From: an uncultured Oscillospiraceae bacterium | GTDB taxonomy: Bacteria; Bacillota; Clostridia; Oscillospirales; Ruminococcaceae | Assembly (NCBI GenBank): GCA_949298535.1 | Contig: CASFXA010000016.1 | Coordinates: 1 to 34,753, forward strand | Reading direction: 5' to 3' | Length of the DNA: 34,753 nucleotides | In this document: one piece after another, positions 2-18,176 of the stretch | How positions within the stretch are numbered: position 1 is the first letter of the stretch | Layout of the letters: each line of letters begins with the position of its first letter | The notes under the pieces: generated by a model | Databases searched by the model: none | What the model was told of the DNA's origin: nothing | What the model saw: the letters and a program-made list of their open reading frames with translations, nothing else | Translations under genes and position numbers: made by a program

Positions 2-40
2 GACATTGGAGGGATCATCCCGTTGGAAACGGTAGACTGA
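2..40 (+). CDS. possible C-terminal end of a gene cut by the window edge
   Basis: Frame 2 reads a short sensible tail (DIGGIIPLETVD) ending in TGA, and a small hairpin with four T follows it. Twelve residues cannot identify a family. The other plus-strand frames end at 31-33 and 73-75 and look less protein-like. This is only a guess at the upstream neighbour of the insertion. Confidence 0.2.
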   Translation, partial: DIGGIIPLETVD

Positions 41-162: not shown

Positions 163-181
163 CCCTAAATTTCGCTAAATT
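163..181. repeat. left copy of 19-bp direct repeat (putative attL core)
   Basis: CCCTAAATTTCGCTAAATT is identical to 2899-2917; identity stops on both sides. To its right lies element sequence ACTGTTTAACG instead of the palindromic right arm seen at the other copy. That is the expected pattern for a hybrid attachment site. Confidence 0.55.
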
Positions 182-243
182 ACTGTTTAACGTCAATTTC
201 TGGCATACTCCCGCCGAGATTGCGTTAAACATGAAATTTAGCG
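173..243. repeat. long imperfect inverted repeat at the left element end
   Basis: CGCTAAATT then GTTTAACG (173-192) face CGTTAAAC then AAATTTAGCG (223-243). The arms match over about 17 of 20 positions around a 30-nt centre. The outer half reuses the AAATTTCGCTAAAT motif of the direct repeats. It could be an arm-type recombinase binding site, an operator or a replication origin hairpin. Confidence 0.5.
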
Positions 244-298
244 GGCCAGGGGCCGCTGTGCGGATCGTTCCTATTACGCCAGTGGCCCCGCCTGGGCC
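243..298. repeat. GC-rich imperfect hairpin in the non-coding left end
   Basis: GGGCCAGGGGCCGCTG (243-258) is largely complementary to CAGTGGCCCCGCCTGGGCC (280-298), leaving a 21-nt loop. It continues the run of inverted repeats starting at 117 and lies before the replication gene. A single-strand or double-strand origin is a possible role, but this is inference. Confidence 0.4.
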
Positions 299-409
299 GT
301 AAAATTTCGGGCAGGGCAGGCAGGGAGCAGGATTCTGCAGCGCCCCCGCCTATCTTCGGATGGGTGGGGGAAGGGGGGCCAGGCGCAAGAGCAGCGCCCG
401 GATGCAGCT

Positions 410-439
410 GTACCATCCGCCAGGGGCGGCGGGGGGTAC
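410..439. repeat. 30-bp hairpin repeat, copy 1
   Basis: The unit starts GTACCATCCGCC and ends GGGGGGTAC. Its ends pair (GTACC with GGTAC) and CCGCC pairs with GGCGG, giving a bulged hairpin. Identical to 2600-2629 and one mismatch from 2494-2523. It sits 69 bp before the Rep start. Confidence 0.8.
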
Positions 440-507
440 GGCTGCGAAAGGGCAGCGGGCGGGGTTCTATACTTGACAAAGTATCGTTAAGCGGGAAATC
501 CTGTGGC

Positions 508-1491
508 ATGGGGTTGAAAAATTCTCTCTTGCGGTGTGGCGATTTTGTTGTGATTCGGCGGTACGGGGATCGGTATAAGATGATCTACTTTCGTTATGGC
601 CGCAAGCCGCCGGAGGATCGAGAGGGGCGGCAGTTTGGTCACAGTCGGGTCGATTTGGGCGGAAATGAATCTGAATCGGGTGGAAATGAGCCTCGTCGGT
701 TGCAGAATAATATCAGTAGGGCGAAGGGAAGGGTTTTTGAATTGGGGATGTGTAATCCCTGGGAGTGGTTTTTCACGGGAACTTTGGATGGCGCTATGTG
801 GGATAGGGGCGATTTGGATGTCTGGTATGGAAATTTCAGCCAGTATATTCGGGATCAGAGACGAAAGGGATATTTGTGCGCCTATCTGTTGATTCCGGAA
901 CAGCACAAGGATGGTAGCTGGCATATTCATGGGTTGCTGTCTGGTTTTCCTCCTGCCGCTTTCCGGGCGTTTAGCCTGGATGAGCGCTTGCCGATGCGGA
1001 TTATCAAGAAATTGCAAAAGGGGGAACAGGTGTATGAATGGGTCGGGTATCGGCGGCGGTATGGGTTCAATACGTTGGAGCCGTTGCGAGACAGGCAGCG
1101 GGCGGCGGCTTATGTGACGAAGTACATAACCAAGGACTTCGGCGGCGGGGGCCGGGGCGGGGCGCCTGGTCTTGAGCCTGGGAAGCATTTGTATTATGCA
1201 AGCCGTGGTTTGGCGGGGTCGGAATTGCTTTTGTTGGATAAGATAGCTTTTCCGTCTGGGTATCGGTGGGATTTTGAGGGGGATTATTGCAAAATTTTGT
1301 GGAAGGATAGCCTGGAAGACTTTGGTCTGGAAGGGCTGCGCATGGAGGACGGAAAAGTGGTGTATAGTCTGCTAGATGAAAAGTTTACTTCACTAGACAA
1401 CGGATGTGATTGGGAAGCTGCTTTGAAGAAGGCCATGGCGCAAGCGGCAGCGGAACGCCTGGCCGATCTGGGGGCCGGACGCTTCATGTGA
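508..1491 (+). CDS. HUH-type rolling-circle replication initiator (Rep)
   Basis: Predicted single-strand endonuclease that nicks the origin and stays bound to the 5' end during rolling-circle replication. In the 327-residue product the three Rep motifs are visible in order: FFTGTLD at 88-94, the metal-binding HIH of WHIHGLL at 139-141, and YVTKYITK at 202-209 with two candidate catalytic tyrosines (Y202, Y206). KHLYYASRGL follows at about 226. This layout resembles the ORF2/G2P-like initiators of filamentous phages and microviruses and of some Firmicutes plasmids. The frame is open from 364, but the first 48 codons cross hairpin repeat copy 1, so ATG 508 is preferred; no good ribosome site is seen. 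A TTGACA lies at 473-478 without a clear -10. Clustered GG-rich codons differ from the chromosome. Family call firm; phage versus plasmid origin is open. Confidence 0.8.
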   Translation: MGLKNSLLRCGDFVVIRRYGDRYKMIYFRYGRKPPEDREGRQFGHSRVDLGGNESESGGNEPRRLQNNISRAKGRVFELGMCNPWEWFFTGTLDGAMWDRGDLDVWYGNFSQYIRDQRRKGYLCAYLLIPEQHKDGSWHIHGLLSGFPPAAFRAFSLDERLPMRIIKKLQKGEQVYEWVGYRRRYGFNTLEPLRDRQRAAAYVTKYITKDFGGGGRGGAPGLEPGKHLYYASRGLAGSELLLLDKIAFPSGYRWDFEGDYCKILWKDSLEDFGLEGLRMEDGKVVYSLLDEKFTSLDNGCDWEAALKKAMAQAAAERLADLGAGRFM

Positions 1492-1554
1492 AGCGCGAAA
1501 TAGTCCTGTTTATTGGACTGAAAAGTGGTTCCGTTATCTTTTGGCGTACAAGTT

Positions 1555-1573
1555 GGGGGCCATCACGGCCCCC
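1555..1573. repeat. 7-bp GC hairpin between rep and the recombinase gene
   Basis: GGGGGCC (1555-1561) and GGCCCCC (1567-1573) form a perfect stem with a 5-nt loop ATCAC. No T run follows, so it is not a normal intrinsic terminator. Placed just after a rolling-circle rep gene, it is a candidate nick-site hairpin. Confidence 0.5.
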
Positions 1574-1610
1574 AGCAGCCAAAAGGGCCGGATACACTTT
1601 TGAAAATCTG

Positions 1611-1636
1611 GGTTAACTTTTTGCGGAAAGTTAACC
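1611..1636. repeat. 10-6-10 palindrome upstream of the recombinase gene
   Basis: GGTTAACTTT (1611-1620) and AAAGTTAACC (1627-1636) are exact reverse complements around a 6-bp centre TTGCGG. The geometry resembles a tyrosine-recombinase core site (two arms and a 6-bp crossover region) and also an operator. It ends 23 bp before the preferred GTG start, so autoregulation is plausible. Confidence 0.55.
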
Positions 1637-1659
1637 ATTGCGTTGAAAGGGTGTTAAAA

Positions 1660-2175
1660 GTGCGTAGTGCCTGGGTTAAGACGGAAGAATTGAGCCATGT
1701 ATTGGCTGCTCTTACACCAGCAAACAGATTAGCTTGTGAAATTTCGCTTGCTACTGGACTTCGGATCGGCGACGTGCTACAATTGAAGTCTGAAACGGTA
1801 ACTCGGAGTAATCGTTTCACGGTGCAAGAACAGAAAACCGGAAAGCGGCGCAGGGTGTACATACCTCGCCCTCTTTGGCTGCGGGCTTGCGCTGCTGCGG
1901 GTCCTGTGTATGTGTTTTCAGGGCGGTGCAACGGGCGGAAGCATCGTACACGGCAGGCGGTTTACAAGGATTTGCGACGGGCGGCAGAGGCGTTCCGCCT
2001 CGATCTGCCGGTTACGCCGCATAGCTGCCGAAAGGCGTGGGCCGTGGACAAACTGGCGGAGCCAGGGAGCAGCTTGAAACGAGTTCAGCGCTTGCTGAAT
2101 CATGATAGCGAAGCGGTGACGATGTTGTACGCCATGGCGGACAAGTTGGAGCAGCGCAAGCGGAAGGGGCGATAA
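1660..2175 (+). CDS. minimal tyrosine recombinase/integrase (catalytic domain only)
   Basis: Site-specific recombinase expected to cut and rejoin the attachment sites. From GTG 1660 (GAAAGG 9 nt upstream) it has 171 residues. All active-site residues can be seen: R35 in ATGLRIGDVL, K59 or K62 in QKTGK, H121 and R124 in HSCRK, H148 in LLNHDS and the nucleophile Y157 in MLYAMAD. The N-terminal core-binding domain of normal integrases (usually 80-150 residues) is absent. Upstream in-frame starts (GTG 1525 or 1651) would only add codons crossing the two palindromes. The basic C-terminus (EQRKRKGR) may bind DNA. It lies 168 bp after rep and 2 bp before the next small ORF, suggesting one transcript. 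Family call is firm; partners and target site are inferred. Confidence 0.8.
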   Translation: MRSAWVKTEELSHVLAALTPANRLACEISLATGLRIGDVLQLKSETVTRSNRFTVQEQKTGKRRRVYIPRPLWLRACAAAGPVYVFSGRCNGRKHRTRQAVYKDLRRAAEAFRLDLPVTPHSCRKAWAVDKLAEPGSSLKRVQRLLNHDSEAVTMLYAMADKLEQRKRKGR

Positions 2176-2177
2176 AG

Positions 2178-2576
2178 GTGTCCAGTTTGACGCATGGCGG
2201 CAGGTGGGTTCAGGTTAAAGTCTCTACTTTGGAGCGGTTGCGGAGAGCCGCCAGAGATGGAGATTTTGGTCAGGTAAACCAGCTGCTGGATGATCTGTTA
2301 GATTTTGGGCGGCAGTCGGAATATCGTTTGTTGCAGGACGAAGTTTATCAGAGATGGAAAGCGGGGGCGGACGATGCCTGGTACAAAGAGTGCCGGGAGA
2401 GGCTGGAAAGCCTGATTCTGTTAACCTCCCTTCCCTGTGGGAAAAAGCCCCCGGTGGGGGCACGGCAGGGGGCGGCGGCACCGCCCGCCCCCTGTACCAT
2501 CCGCCAGAGGCGGCGGGGGGTACGGGGGCAACCTGTAGGGAGCGAGGCAGAGGGTTGCGCTCCGATAGGAGGTTGA
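2178..2576 (+). CDS. small hypothetical protein of the element
   Basis: GTG start two bases after the recombinase stop (AAAGG just upstream), so probably translationally coupled. The first 80 or so residues look like a compact helical, charged protein (STLERLRRAARDGDFGQ and a Leu/Asp-rich helix, then YRLLQDEVYQRW). I recognise no family. The last 50 residues are translated from the GC-rich hairpins and hairpin repeat copy 2 and are low-complexity, rich in Gly, Pro and Arg. The repeat may therefore have extended or replaced the original end of the gene. An excisionase or copy-control role would fit the position but is not supported by a motif. Confidence 0.5.
   Translation: MSSLTHGGRWVQVKVSTLERLRRAARDGDFGQVNQLLDDLLDFGRQSEYRLLQDEVYQRWKAGADDAWYKECRERLESLILLTSLPCGKKPPVGARQGAAAPPAPCTIRQRRRGVRGQPVGSEAEGCAPIGG
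2466..2494. repeat. very GC-rich hairpin abutting repeat copy 2
   Basis: CAGGGGGCGGCGG (2466-2478) pairs with CCGCCCGCCCCCTG (2481-2494) with a single bulge and a 2-nt loop. It shares its last base with hairpin repeat copy 2. A smaller TTCCC/GGGAA hairpin precedes it near 2431-2445. The block could be a single-strand origin. Confidence 0.5.
2494..2523. repeat. 30-bp hairpin repeat, copy 2
   Basis: Same unit as 410-439 with one change (CAGAGG instead of CAGGGG). It lies inside the 3' part of the small ORF, where it encodes CTIRQRRRGV. Confidence 0.8.
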
Positions 2577-2599
2577 GGGCGGGAGGACAAAGGCCGCTT

Positions 2600-2629
2600 G
2601 TACCATCCGCCAGGGGCGGCGGGGGGTAC
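2600..2629. repeat. 30-bp hairpin repeat, copy 3
   Basis: Exact copy of 410-439, in the same orientation, 76 bp after copy 2. It lies in the non-coding stretch 2577-3017, which otherwise holds only G-rich sequence and the right attachment-site region. Confidence 0.8.
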
Positions 2630-2898
2630 GGCGGCCAAGTTAAGGGGCAGAGATTAGGGCGGCGGAGTGGCTGGCGCATTTGTCAGGCGTAGGCCGGTCC
2701 GGTTTTTGTGGCGGGATGCAAAGATAGAGGCAGAGAGCGGATGCAAAAACCGTACTTTTGGCCCCGCCTGCGTGCAGACAGCCGCCCGCCGCAAAACCGC
2801 CAAGTACAGATTGTCCCACTGATTGCAATAGGGCCGGAGGCCCGGAAAATGATAGGAGGTGTGGGTTTCCCGGAAAATGAGGAGGACTAACCGCCCTG

Positions 2899-2933
2899 CC
2901 CTAAATTTCGCTAAATTTGTATTTAGCGAAATT
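2899..2933. repeat. right copy of the direct repeat within a 13-4-13 palindrome (putative attR)
   Basis: 2899-2917 is the second copy of CCCTAAATTTCGCTAAATT. It overlaps a perfect inverted repeat: AATTTCGCTAAAT (2904-2916) and ATTTAGCGAAATT (2921-2933) around TTGT. Counted as 11-bp arms, the centre is 8 bp, which fits a tyrosine-recombinase crossover site. The right arm is absent from the left copy, so it is probably host sequence. The palindrome lies 85 bp upstream of the chromosomal recombinase gene and may also be its operator. Confidence 0.6.
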
Positions 2934-3017: not shown

Positions 3018-4112
3018 ATGTCAAATATCAATCAATATGAAGCGCCGCCGCTGCTGCGGGAATTTCTCACATATCTTCTCACTATCAAAGGCCGCTCCCC
3101 CAGAACGGTGGACGGCTATTACATCGATCTGCGCTTTTTTCTGCGGTATCTGAAGGCTTCCCGGAACGGACTGCCTATGGAGGAAAAAAATCTGGCTGAT
3201 GTGACCATCTCTGATATTCCGGAGGAACTGATTTTGCAGGCCAGCATCTCTGACGCCTACAGCTTTTTGAATTTTGCCCTGCAGGAAAATGAAAACAAAG
3301 CTGCCACCCGCTGCCGGAAAGTCTCCAGCATCCGGGCGTTTTATACCTATCTTCAAACCAAAACCACCAAACTTCCCACCAACCCCATGGAGCACCTGGA
3401 GACTCCGGCCAAGAAAAAGGCTATGCCAAAATATCTCACTCTGGAGGAAAGTATACAGCTATTGAACGCCATCGGCGGCAAGCAGCGGCAACGGGATTAC
3501 TGTATGATCGTTTTTCTTCTCAACTGCGGGATGCGTCTGTCTGAACTGGTGGGGATTAAAACCACCAGCTTTCAGGGCGATAACGGCCTGAGGCTGCTGG
3601 GAAAAGGAAACAAGGAGCGGATCGTTTTTCTCAATCAGTCCTGCCTGGAAGCCAAGGCAGCTTACGATCAGGTGCGCAGCGAATCCTCCGTGGCAAAGTA
3701 CAAGGAGTTCTACTTTCTTTCCCAACAGGGCCGTCCCCTCTCCCCCCGCCGGGTGGAACAGATTCTGGAGGGACATCTCCAGGCTGCCGGATTAAGCGGA
3801 CGGGGCATCAGCCCTCACAAACTGCGGCATACCGCCGCCACGCTGATGTATCAGCATGGCCATGTGGATATTCGGGTGCTGAAAGATGTGCTGGGACACG
3901 TGAATCTGGGCACAACCGAGATTTATACCCATCTGGCCGGCAGCCAGATTGAACAGGCGGCAAACGCCTCCCCACTGTCCACTTTTCATCAGCCTCCGCA
4001 GCCTCAGCCCATTCAGCTGTCATTGGAGCCACAACAGTCCCCGGAAGACGTAGAGGAGGAAACTCTGGAACAACAGAGCAAAAAGAAACAGCAGCAGATA
4101 AAGACGGACTGA
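3018..4112 (+). CDS. xerD: tyrosine recombinase XerC/XerD family
   Basis: Chromosome-dimer-resolution type recombinase acting at dif-like sites. The 364-residue product has a normal N-terminal SAM-like core-binding domain (about 10-115) and catalytic domain with R173 (CGMRLSELV), K196 (GKGNK), H267/R270 (HKLRH), H294 (LGHVNLG) and Y303 (EIYTH). An unusual Pro/Gln/Glu-rich tail of about 45 residues follows position 320 and overlaps the convergent SpoIIM-like gene. The frame is open from 2859, but those codons cross the insertion palindrome, so ATG 3018 is preferred although its ribosome site is poor. A xerD next to a spoIIM gene is known from Bacilli and Clostridia, which favours the chromosomal XerD role over a second integrase of the element. 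The XerC/XerD distinction is not certain from sequence. Confidence 0.75.
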   Translation: MSNINQYEAPPLLREFLTYLLTIKGRSPRTVDGYYIDLRFFLRYLKASRNGLPMEEKNLADVTISDIPEELILQASISDAYSFLNFALQENENKAATRCRKVSSIRAFYTYLQTKTTKLPTNPMEHLETPAKKKAMPKYLTLEESIQLLNAIGGKQRQRDYCMIVFLLNCGMRLSELVGIKTTSFQGDNGLRLLGKGNKERIVFLNQSCLEAKAAYDQVRSESSVAKYKEFYFLSQQGRPLSPRRVEQILEGHLQAAGLSGRGISPHKLRHTAATLMYQHGHVDIRVLKDVLGHVNLGTTEIYTHLAGSQIEQAANASPLSTFHQPPQPQPIQLSLEPQQSPEDVEEETLEQQSKKKQQQIKTD

Positions 4113-4777: not shown

Positions 4778-6211
4778 TTACAGGGCCGCTTCACAGGCGC
4801 CGCAGCCTTCCTCGCCGCAGCTGCCGCAGTCCTTCTGCGCGGAGACGGGAGCCCCGTCAGCCAAAGCCGCTTTAATCATGATGGCACATTCCACCCGTTT
4901 CTTTTCCAGCTCACAGGAGAGGTGATAGGGCTTGAGGATGCTGCCGCAGTAGGTCTGGCTGTTGGCGTTGCAGCCGCCGCTGCAATAGAACTTGGCCCAG
5001 CAATTGCGGCAGTCCTCCTTGCCATAGACGGTGGAGGCGGCAAACTTTTTCTTCATCTCCAGGTCGATGGACTGAGTGAAAACATCCCCCATCTTCCATT
5101 CCGGATGTCCCACAAACTGATGACAAGGATAAACGTCACCGTCAGGGGTGACCGCCACATACTCGTTGCCGGCTCCGCAGCCCCGGAGGCGTTTGATGGC
5201 GCAGGGTCCCTGATCCAGGTCCAGCATAAAGTGGAAGAAATTGAAGCCGGTTCTTTCTTTGCGCCGCTGAATCAGAATTTTTGCCAGCCGCTCGTACTCC
5301 GCATCGATCACCGGCAGATCCGCCTCCGTGATGGCGTAGGGATATTGGGGATCGGCCACTACCGGCTCTACAGAAATCTGGTCGAAGCCGCAGCGGTTCA
5401 GATGAAGGACATCCTCGGTAAAATCCAGATTATACTTGGTGAAGGTACCCCGGACGTAGTACTGGCTGTCTCCCCGCTTGTCCACCAGCTTTTTGAACTT
5501 GGGCATAATGGCCTCATAGCAGCCGCTGTGGTCCACCCGATGGCGCACCCGGTCGTTGACTTCCTTGCGGCCATCGATGGAAAGCACCACATTGTACATC
5601 TGCTCATTGATGAAGTCAATTTTATCATCCGTCAGCAAAACGCCGTTGGTGGTGATGGTGAAACGAAATTTCTTGTTGTATTTTTCTTCCAGGCTTCTGG
5701 CATAAAGGACCACTTCTTTGACCACGTCAAAATTCAGCAGCGGTTCTCCGCCAAAGAAATCCACCTCCAGATTCCGTCGGTTTTCCGACTTGGCAATGAG
5801 GTAATCAATGGCCTTTTTACCCACTTCCAGGGGCATATTCTTCCGACCATTGCCATAGTCCCCGGTACCGGCAAAGCAGTAATCACACCGGAGGTTGCAG
5901 TCATGGGAGATATGCAGACACATGGCCTTCACCGGAGAGAGGGTCATCAGATTCTGGAACTTGTCATAATCGTCCTCACTGAACAGGCTCCCCTCTTTAT
6001 AAAGGGTGAGGATCTCCTCATAAGCCTCCTGCAGCTCCTCCTCAGGATAGGATGCCTTCAGTTTATCCAGCACCTCCTGGGGACAGCTTTCCCCCAAAGG
6101 AGGGGTCAGAGAGGTGGTCAGATCATAGAACAGATCATCCACCACATGAACGCCGCCGCTGTGAACATCCAGAATAATATTGTAGCCATTGAGCTTGTAA
6201 GCATGGATCAT
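4778..6211 (-). CDS. scfB: SCIFF peptide thioether-forming radical SAM maturase
   Basis: Radical SAM/SPASM enzyme that installs Cys-to-alpha-carbon thioether bonds in the six-Cys SCIFF peptide encoded just upstream. The N-terminal 90 or so residues correspond to the RiPP recognition element of this family. The [4Fe-4S]-SAM motif is C105-x3-C109-x2-C112 (CNLRCDYC), with FFGGEPLL at about 152. The C-terminal SPASM region carries GPC, GCGAGN, YPCHQF, CRNCWAKFYCSGGC and further Cys. After the SPASM domain is an extra tail with two CxxC pairs (CGSC, CGAC). 477 residues is close to the family length. ATG 6211 has AAAGGTGAG upstream. It follows scfA by 89 nt with a terminator-like hairpin between them. 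Confidence 0.93.
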   Translation of the reverse strand: MIHAYKLNGYNIILDVHSGGVHVVDDLFYDLTTSLTPPLGESCPQEVLDKLKASYPEEELQEAYEEILTLYKEGSLFSEDDYDKFQNLMTLSPVKAMCLHISHDCNLRCDYCFAGTGDYGNGRKNMPLEVGKKAIDYLIAKSENRRNLEVDFFGGEPLLNFDVVKEVVLYARSLEEKYNKKFRFTITTNGVLLTDDKIDFINEQMYNVVLSIDGRKEVNDRVRHRVDHSGCYEAIMPKFKKLVDKRGDSQYYVRGTFTKYNLDFTEDVLHLNRCGFDQISVEPVVADPQYPYAITEADLPVIDAEYERLAKILIQRRKERTGFNFFHFMLDLDQGPCAIKRLRGCGAGNEYVAVTPDGDVYPCHQFVGHPEWKMGDVFTQSIDLEMKKKFAASTVYGKEDCRNCWAKFYCSGGCNANSQTYCGSILKPYHLSCELEKKRVECAIMIKAALADGAPVSAQKDCGSCGEEGCGACEAAL

Positions 6212-10035: not shown

Positions 10036-10213
10036 GAAAGTGATAGAGGCGCGGCTTTGATGAGTATTTCCTTTTTGTGATGACCGCCCGGTCAAACGGA
10101 AAAAAAGGCAACGCCGCCGAAGAGGACGGAACGGCATCCCTTCTCTGGTCGAATTGCTGAACAAGGATCCGACTGTCGCCGGAAATCCCGGCGAAGCGCT
10201 ATCAGAAGGACGG
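10036..10213 (+). promoter_or_regulatory. lysine riboswitch (L box)
   Basis: Conserved L-box elements appear in order: TGATAGAGGCGCG (10041-10053), GAGTAT (about 10062), GCCGCCGAAG (about 10113), TTGCTG (about 10154), and the closing CTATCA (10199-10204), which pairs exactly with TGATAG to form P1. Binding of lysine to this aptamer normally causes premature termination. It sits before asd-dapA-dapB, whose pathway ends in lysine, so the logic is feedback repression. Confidence 0.9.
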
Positions 10214-17903: not shown

Positions 17904-18145
17904 AAAAATAATAACGCCCCCGCACAGGTTTGTGCAGAGGGCGAATCAATTCGCGGTACCACCTCAGTTCAGCAGGATGTCGCCATGCCTGCCCTTTGGA
18001 AGTTCCAGAAGAAACTTCTGTGATATAACGGTCACACCCGGCAAACCCTACTTTCGGTTCAGGCCGCAGCTCCAAGAGGTATTTCCCACGGAGGCGGACG
18101 CTTTTTTCCACCAGCCAAAAGCTCTCTGAGGACCGCTTGGTCCGT
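17904..18145 (-). promoter_or_regulatory. tyrosine T-box leader
   Basis: Minus strand shows a stem I region (5' side around 18140-18110, AGAGAGC), a candidate specifier TAC (18081-18079) for tyrosine, the T-box AGGTGGTACCGCG (17964-17952), and a terminator: CGCCCCCGCACA (17915-17926) pairs with TGTGCAGAGGGCG (17931-17943), followed on the minus strand by TATTATTTTT. Uncharged tRNA-Tyr would stabilise the antiterminator and allow tyrS-zupT to be read. Confidence 0.93.
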
Positions 18146-18176
18146 GGTACTGATTCTTTTCACAGCAATTAAGTGG

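What the first reader, a model, noticed from the sequence alone, without database searches (positions are those of the whole stretch)
163..2917. Minimal 2.7-kb integrated replicon: HUH Rep plus a catalytic-core-only tyrosine recombinase
An exact 19-bp direct repeat encloses only a rolling-circle initiator with all three Rep motifs, a 171-residue tyrosine recombinase with every active-site residue but no core-binding domain, and one small unknown ORF. There is no capsid, Zot, relaxosome or partition gene. This is one of the smallest layouts that could both integrate and replicate, and may be a satellite that borrows other functions.
Basis: partly seen in the sequence, partly recalled or inferred. 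Interest (0 to 1): 0.7.

Follow-up and report, generated by a model that had tools for sequence, protein, structure and literature searches.

The report
Tiny replicon inserted at dif
A 2.7-kb element that carries little more than a replication gene and a stripped-down recombinase sits in what looks like the chromosome-unlinking site of a gut bacterium, and it belongs to a group of such elements in gut Clostridia whose attachment sites often look like those of a filamentous phage.

Summary
An exact 19-bp repeat (163-181, 2899-2917) bounds a 2,736-bp element with an inovirus-type HUH Rep, a catalytic-domain-only tyrosine recombinase (TyrR) and one unknown ORF. The target is new to the finding: the right end is a perfect 13-4-13 palindrome 84 bp before a full-length xer gene. 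Such a palindrome lies before xer in 21 of 29 relatives' loci, and a same-genus genome has it empty between matching flanks. It is most likely dif. The element is one of a family: 34 further loci in public genomes and seven circular 2.2-3.8-kb rat-cecum plasmids encode related TyrR. Of 35 loci, 32 have a replication initiator upstream, of four types. In 10 of 18 elements tested, the window's included, the boundary site has an inverted partner that would fold on single strands as CTXphi attP does. Best reading: an integrative rolling-circle plasmid that exploits dif/Xer. A phage-satellite life is possible but not shown: 17 of 19 carrier genomes have no detected Zot. What TyrR does is unproven. 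New variant of a known kind.

The parts
2..40 (+). 3' end of the left flanking chromosomal gene (...DIGGIIPLETVD stop)
   Evidence: 10 of 12 residues as in the C-terminus (...DVGGIIPLATVD stop) of the gene left of the empty site in G002, L041 5518-6348 minus
163..181 (.). left copy of the 19-bp direct repeat
168..197 (+). attL / attP1: dif left arm AATTTCGCTAAAT, centre, divergent second arm GTTTAACG
216..243 (+). attP2: inverted partner of attP1; 163-252 folds as one hairpin as single-stranded DNA (z -6.0)
   Evidence: 0 of 500 shuffles as good
405..445 (+). GC-rich hairpin, copy 1 of 3 (TGTACCATCCGCC...)
   Evidence: three copies in the whole genome (up to 2 mismatches), all inside the element
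469..484 (+). probable rolling-circle origin, ATACTTGACAAAGTAT; ACTTGA is conserved before rep
   Evidence: 26 of 27 G2P-type loci, 0 of 8 with other Reps; also before rep in inoviruses
508..1491 (+). rep, HUH initiator of the inovirus G2P type (start codon uncertain)
   Evidence: PF23343; the 25 phage records hit are bajarodino and Dulem viruses, the two opened are Inoviridae
1660..2175 (+). tyrR, catalytic-domain-only tyrosine recombinase, 171 aa
   Evidence: PF00589; alignments A1, A2
2178..2576 (+). ORF of unknown function, accessory
   Evidence: no family hit; no tblastn hit over 40 bits in the 45 loci
2489..2530 (+). GC-rich hairpin, copy 2
2595..2635 (+). GC-rich hairpin, copy 3 (weaker, z -2.2)
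2899..2917 (.). right copy of the 19-bp direct repeat
2904..2933 (.). attR = reconstituted dif, 13-4-13 perfect palindrome
   Evidence: only place in the own genome with up to 3 mismatches
3018..4112 (+). chromosomal xer, full-length tyrosine recombinase (not part of the element)
   Evidence: single match in the own genome

Best explanation
The element is an integrative rolling-circle plasmid that uses the host's dif/Xer site, one of a family in Oscillospirales. Rep nicks an origin just before its gene and makes single strands (inferred from the Rep family). The attP on the displaced strand folds attP1 onto attP2 into a dif-like stem; one strand pair is exchanged with chromosomal dif and replication finishes the job, leaving one working dif and two dead dif-like sites (inferred by analogy with CTXphi). 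Host Xer most likely makes that exchange, since inovirus-like prophages without TyrR sit at the same kind of site. TyrR, catalytically intact, most likely helps or replaces Xer on the element's divergent arm, or excises or resolves the element; this step is inferred and weak. Shown: insertion at the palindrome beside xer, an empty site, the recurring layout, the att architecture, circular relatives on record. Inferred: that the palindrome is dif, the single-strand route, and the role of TyrR.
For: Palindrome within 260 bp before xer in 21 of 29 loci, two more slightly farther. xer lies at 51% and 54% of the map from dnaA in two of three genomes with both positions. Empty site in same-genus G002. 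35 loci: initiator upstream on the same strand in 32, palindrome within 3 kb downstream in 22, Xer in 24 (the table's Rep_trans for L128 is the neighbouring inovirus's, its own Rep is G2P). In 29 of the 34 loci, palindromes of the dif design number 21 in 83.6 kb just downstream of TyrR and 1 in 302 kb elsewhere. Left arm repeated with at most 1 mismatch in 17 of 24, for eight different dif arms. Inverted att pair in 10 of 18. Origin motif 26 of 27 versus 0 of 8. Seven circular plasmids with TyrR, six with a recognised Rep, three with dif-like arms around a 9-12 nt centre. dN/dS 0.04-0.47 in six TyrR pairs, a seventh not computable.
Against: No read-level or experimental evidence; the window is a contig of an 86%-complete genome and starts 162 bp before the element. 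8 of 18 elements have no attP2 partner. 13 of 35 loci show no palindrome within 3 kb (4 cut by the contig end). In one of the two genomes with xer opposite dnaA (G044) no palindrome was found before xer; in G002 xer lies 1.26 Mb from dnaA in a 2.99-Mb contig. The element's own DNA has no match among plasmids. None of the seven circles shows the G2P Rep of the window. The three attP-like sites on circles were picked by eye among several palindromes, without a chance control.
Confidence: 0.72

Rival explanations
1. Inovirus satellite, in the manner of RS1: the element replicates with an inovirus-type Rep, integrates at dif and is packaged by a helper inovirus.
For: Rep and origin motif match those of inoviruses. 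In G187 and G137 the element sits in tandem with an inovirus-like prophage carrying Zot; G137 has two units identical at 2543 of 2544 positions. RS1 and TLCphi are precedents (PMC4246890, passages).
Against: Zot in 2 of 19 carrier genomes versus 24 of 388 in the order; none in the window's 86%-complete genome. Relatives use plasmid Reps (Rep_1, Rep_OBD) and are on record as plasmids. No packaging signal shown.
Confidence: 0.2
2. The element integrates by its own TyrR alone; dif is just the attachment site it evolved to use, and host Xer is not needed.
For: TyrR defines the family and its active-site residues are invariant in 34 sequences; the second att arm diverges from dif in the window and several others.
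Against: Inovirus-like prophages sit at the palindrome in G014 and G011, and neither genome has a TyrR match at E<=1e-8, so Xer may suffice. The left arm matches each host's own dif arm in 17 of 24. XerH grips DNA with two domains (PMC5241119, passages); TyrR has one.
Confidence: 0.2
3. A decayed inovirus prophage that lost its morphogenesis genes and is no longer mobile.
For: Inovirus-type Rep and origin; small ORF without relatives found.
Against: Same gene order in 32 of 35 loci, low dN/dS on TyrR, four initiator types, circular relatives.
Confidence: 0.05

Closest known systems
IMEX (integrative mobile elements exploiting Xer), CTXphi type
   Same: Inserted at a dif-type site; one intact dif-like site and two imperfect ones after integration; inverted attP1/attP2 that can fold on single strands; rolling-circle Rep.
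   Different: Encodes its own catalytic-only tyrosine recombinase; the host seems to have one Xer with its site beside the gene; no phage structural genes; attP1 centre 6-10 nt (counted by eye) versus 12 in CTXphi.
RS1 satellite of CTXphi
   Same: About 2.7 kb (size of RS1 recalled), Rep, dif insertion, no coat genes; in two genomes relatives lie in tandem with an inovirus-like prophage.
   Different: The small ORF matches no PHROG; no Zot in 17 of 19 carriers; own recombinase.
LME-1 of Legionella with XerL
   Same: Mobile element at a single-recombinase dif with perfectly symmetric arms; one intact and one altered site flank it (passages).
   Different: LME-1 is phage-like and larger (size recalled); no catalytic-only recombinase in the passages read.
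Small circular plasmids of the rat cecum metamobilome (HG796380 pRGI00836 and six others)
   Same: 2.2-3.8-kb circles with TyrR and, in six of seven, a rolling-circle Rep; three with dif-like arms.
   Different: Rep_1 or Rep_OBD instead of G2P. In the passages seen the paper only counts 83 'phage integrase' domains among 616 circles (PMC3913684).
FimB/FimE-like tyrosine-type invertases (NF007371, NF007370; the FimB/FimE names are recalled)
   Same: Models of 198-200 aa that align to the catalytic domain of the window's Xer only.
   Different: TyrR does not match these models at E<=1 and is linked to Rep and dif.

Membership tests
IMEX | inserted at the host's dif site | tested here: met
   Palindrome beside xer, empty site in G002; that the palindrome is dif is inferred
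IMEX | att site mimics dif arms | tested here: met
   17 of 24 loci with at most 1 mismatch to the host's own arm, the window exact
IMEX | integration by host Xer, no integrase of its own | tested here: inconclusive
   The element encodes TyrR; use of Xer cannot be tested here
CTXphi-type single-strand integration | inverted attP1/attP2 folding into an attP stem | tested here: met
   Window z -6.0, 0 of 500 shuffles; absent in 8 of 18 family members
CTXphi-type single-strand integration | integration depends on the single-stranded circle | not testable with these tools
   needs experiment
Inoviridae | Zot/pI morphogenesis ATPase and coat genes | tested here: not met
   none among the element's genes; no Zot in the genome
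Inoviridae | G2P-type Rep | tested here: met
   PF23343; phage hits are bajarodino and Dulem viruses
RS1-type inovirus satellite | packaging by a helper inovirus | not testable with these tools
   only co-occurrence was looked at: Zot in 2 of 19 carriers
Single-recombinase Xer/dif (XerH, XerS, XerL kind) | one xer gene, site next to it | tested here: met
   one Xer match in G000, an incomplete genome; palindrome within 260 bp of xer in 21 of 29 relatives' loci
Single-recombinase Xer/dif (XerH, XerS, XerL kind) | resolves chromosome dimers at that site | not testable with these tools
   needs experiment
Rolling-circle plasmid | HUH Rep with an origin nearby | tested here: met
Rolling-circle plasmid | circular form exists | tested here: inconclusive
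   on record for relatives, not for this element
FimB/FimE-like invertase | match to the family models | tested here: not met
   no such hit for TyrR at E<=1

The most novel reading that the evidence does not exclude
TyrR is a clamp-less recombinase specialised to act on folded single-stranded attP next to dif, pairing with the host's single Xer in a mixed complex, and it defines a family of minimal replicons that swap replication modules while keeping one integration module.
Probability: 0.3. Interest if true: 0.82.

Novelty: new variant of a known kind. Interest (0 to 1): 0.66.

Why it matters
It points to a hardly noticed class of very small integrative replicons in gut Clostridia, not found by a profile scan of the viral contig collection and present among unnamed circular plasmids. 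It also suggests a single-Xer/dif system in Oscillospirales and extends folded-strand dif integration, known from Vibrio phages, to plasmid-like elements of Firmicutes. A recombinase with intact active-site residues and no core-binding domain is a clean test of what that domain is needed for. At least two carriers bear strain names that suggest isolates: Anaeromassilibacillus senegalensis mt9 and Gemmiger sp. An194.

Tried and rejected
Plain degenerate prophage: rejected, see rivals. tRNA attachment site: ARAGORN finds no tRNA in the window. Chance repeat: rejected. Genomic repeat family for the GC-rich hairpin: rejected, three copies in the genome, all in the element; of 142 loci held then, only the four from this contig have it. 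Close DNA relatives of the element among plasmids: none. Rep relatives in IMG/VR: none by a single-sequence scan. TyrR in IMG/VR: none by the profile scan, which used one pattern; a scan with the single sequence gave 13 weak relatives at 24-34% identity, not followed up. TyrR among phage records: 69 records, at most 34% identity in the 15 listed, mostly records of Streptococcus phages. TyrR among plasmids: 139 records, of which the seven small circles lead and the next eight listed are at 31-34%; 124 were not listed. Hairpin att as a rule for the whole family: rejected, 8 of 18 lack it. Helper inovirus as a rule: not supported. Promoter and terminator scan: 4 and 5 sites, shuffles 2.1 and 4.1, not informative. 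Structure prediction of TyrR: the job failed and was later not accepted, so the missing domain rests on sequence alone.

Rows left out of counts: G188, G311 and G936 matched TyrR weakly (E 8.5e-9, 8.5e-9 and 2e-23) and were not counted as carriers. One search used 29 of the 34 loci (not L110, L116, L117, L126, L132). One search used 24 loci chosen because a palindrome was known there; one search used the 17 with a good left arm plus L067, whose boundary I picked by eye. L111/L112 and L119/L120 are near-copies and L131/L132 come from one sample.

Papers: passages only of PMC5357621, PMC4246890, PMC6813254, PMC9765430, PMC3025954, PMC8138268, PMC10061712, PMC3089051, PMC5241119, PMC3913684; all others were seen as listings. 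That this family is not described in print rests only on ten listing searches of an open-licence library.
Full report
What is there. The window is contig C16 of an unnamed, 86%-complete genome. An exact 19-bp repeat at 163-181 and 2899-2917 bounds an element with rep, tyrR and one small ORF. The repeat-to-repeat length is 2,736 bp. The right repeat runs into AATTTCGCTAAAT-TTGT-ATTTAGCGAAATT at 2904-2933, the only such palindrome in the genome with up to 3 mismatches, 84 bp before a full-length xer gene (3018-4112; PF02899 plus PF00589).

The target is very likely dif. I looked at the 260 bp before xer in 29 relatives' loci: 21 have a 13-4-13 palindrome with at most two mismatches, and in two more (L029, L033) it lies slightly farther off. 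The arm sequence varies between genera but the design is constant. In two genomes xer lies 51% (G044) and 54% (G029) of the way round from dnaA; in G044, however, no palindrome was found before xer. In a third, G002, xer is 1.26 Mb from dnaA in a 2.99-Mb contig, which is less clear. The own genome gives one Xer match, as do G012 and G013; many others give more, integrases included. Single-recombinase Xer systems are known (XerS and XerH, and XerL of Legionella; PMC5357621 and PMC9765430, passages). I saw no report of one in this order in the passages and listings read.

Empty site. In the same-genus genome G002 the gene on the far side ends ...DVGGIIPLATVD, then comes the intact palindrome, then xer at 90% identity. 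The window begins with ...DIGGIIPLETVD, then the left repeat. So the flanks match and the element is the difference. The match on the left rests on these 12 residues, because the contig begins there, and on the few bases next to the repeat; the rest of the left flank does not align.

It is a family. A profile of eight TyrR sequences found 34 loci in public genomes. By record title many are Oscillospiraceae or named genera such as Gemmiger, Fournierella, Anaeromassilibacillus, Neglectibacter and Merdivicinus; others are only called Clostridia, Bacillota or uncultured, and one short contig is labelled Bacteroidales.

Layout. Of 35 loci (34 plus the window), 32 have a replication initiator upstream on the same strand; in two the contig begins too soon and one (L117) is broken. 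A palindrome lies within 3 kb downstream in 22, is cut off in 4 and is not seen in 9. Xer lies in the locus in 24, in 20 of them downstream on the same strand. The initiators are G2P 24 (counting L128, for which the script chose the neighbouring inovirus's Rep), Rep_1 2, Rep_OBD 1, and 5 of a fourth type. The fourth type reaches no Pfam, PHROG or NCBIfam cut-off in the two proteins scanned; its best solved-structure match is a replication initiation protein, 4cwe, E 3.6e-5 (RepD/pT181 kinship recalled). In 29 of the 34 loci, palindromes of this design number 21 in 83.6 kb just downstream of TyrR and 1 in 302 kb elsewhere (the search form was fitted to the known sites). TyrR proteins are 168-223 aa from the nearest start, and about half have an in-frame stop within a dozen codons upstream, so the missing N-terminal domain is real in those. 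Four initiator types beside one recombinase need at least three replacements. On the TyrR tree three is what is found, with moderate support for the nesting. Six of seven TyrR pairs gave dN/dS of 0.04-0.47, some with saturated dS; one could not be computed.

Ends. In 24 loci with a known palindrome I looked upstream of rep for the left arm of the host's own dif: 17 have it with at most one mismatch, 11 exactly, for eight different arm sequences; seven have no good match, and in five of these the contig begins within 700 bp of rep. Element sizes are then 1.9-4.1 kb (in L118 the arm belongs to the next unit of a tandem). After this arm comes a centre of other sequence, by eye 6-10 nt against 6 in dif, and a second arm. 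In 10 of 18 elements tested, the window's included, an inverted copy of the site follows within about 85 bases (at most 1 of 500 shuffles as good); 8 lack it. Folded as single-stranded DNA, the window's 163-252 gives -21.9 kcal/mol against -8.0 for shuffles, z -6.0. The eight other such elements that were folded range from z -3.3 to -7.0. Two elements without attP2 also fold better than shuffles (z -4.3 and -2.9), so the inverted-site test is the one to trust. [quoted passage not shown]

Replication. ACTTGA lies within 400 bp before rep on the coding strand in 26 of 27 G2P loci and in 0 of 8 with other Reps; 179 of 2700 shuffles hold it. The same motif lies shortly before rep in bajarodino virus 5, Dulem virus 73 and the prophages of G014 and G011; other copies lie elsewhere in these records. 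It resembles phiX174/pC194-type nick sites (recalled). So rep and origin look like one module shared with inoviruses. Three GC-rich hairpins occur only in this element; their role is unknown.

Circular relatives. Seven records of the rat cecum metamobilome (accession range HG796247-HG796860, PMC3913684), 2.2-3.8 kb and marked circular, encode TyrR at 41-53% identity. Five have Rep_1, one Rep_OBD, one no recognised Rep. Three show dif-like arms around a 9-12-nt centre, much as at the boundaries of integrated copies; I picked these by eye among several palindromes and have no chance control, and in the other four I found none. That study tested 40 circles by PCR, 38 with the expected product; I do not know whether these seven were among them. 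The window's own DNA has no match there.

Phages nearby. In G187 the minimal element (1.94 kb) lies in tandem with an inovirus-like prophage carrying Zot, and in G137 two units, identical at 2543 of 2544 positions, lie next to another. L118 holds two units identical over 3,417 bases, which may be real or an assembly effect. Inovirus-like prophages with a Zot-like gene sit at the palindrome in G014 and G011, and neither genome had a TyrR match, so TyrR does not seem needed for integration as such. Zot is found in 2 of 19 carriers and in 24 of 388 genomes of the order: no clear link. The Pfam Zot model may miss divergent ones.

How it most likely works. Rep makes single strands; the folded attP exchanges one strand pair with dif by host Xer; replication completes the insertion. 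TyrR may act on the divergent second arm, alone or mixed with Xer, or excise or resolve the element. Only the anatomy is shown; the reaction and the division of labour are inferred. XerH clamps DNA with two domains (PMC5241119, passages), and the classification paper describes simple recombinases as usually having both (PMC8138268, passages), so TyrR is unusual, though FimB/FimE-type enzymes are also short (recalled; model lengths).

Verdict. A real, mobile-looking, minimal integrative replicon of a family that seems not to have been recognised; a new variant of elements that exploit Xer, with an unexplained recombinase.

Noticed in passing
L073 8698-9335 and 12273-12368 (G059): TyrR is in pieces: residues 1-143 on one strand, the C-terminus on the other strand next to it and again 3.6 kb away, between repeated dif arms; an inversion, a collapsed tandem or a broken copy. 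A stretch of N lies nearby.
   Followed up: partly
L070 1717-2051 (G272): Four dif-like sites in about 330 bp beside the element, as if several insertions had left scars.
   Followed up: no
L040 1478-10492 (G011): A 9-kb prophage with G2P Rep and a weak Zot-like ORF between a dif arm and a dif-like palindrome; its boundary folds as a hairpin too (z -3.0).
   Followed up: partly
window 10036-10209 and 17934-18172: A lysine riboswitch and a T-box leader, well above Rfam thresholds.
   Followed up: no
window 4778-6211, minus strand: ORF that looks by eye like a radical SAM/SPASM peptide maturase (cysteine motif and cysteine-rich C-terminus); no family search run.
   Followed up: no
L110 (LBCX01000313.1): Rep_1 plus TyrR on a 3-kb contig labelled Bacteroidales bacterium Barb4, far from the other hosts; contamination or a free circle in the sample.
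   Followed up: no
L068 9259-10245, L069 8816-9784, L106 6922-7887, L122 674-1645: An initiator type over no Pfam, PHROG or NCBIfam cut-off (L068 and L069 scanned), with a weak RepD-like hint and a solved replication initiation protein as best match; 47-63% identical to the first among the four.
   Followed up: partly
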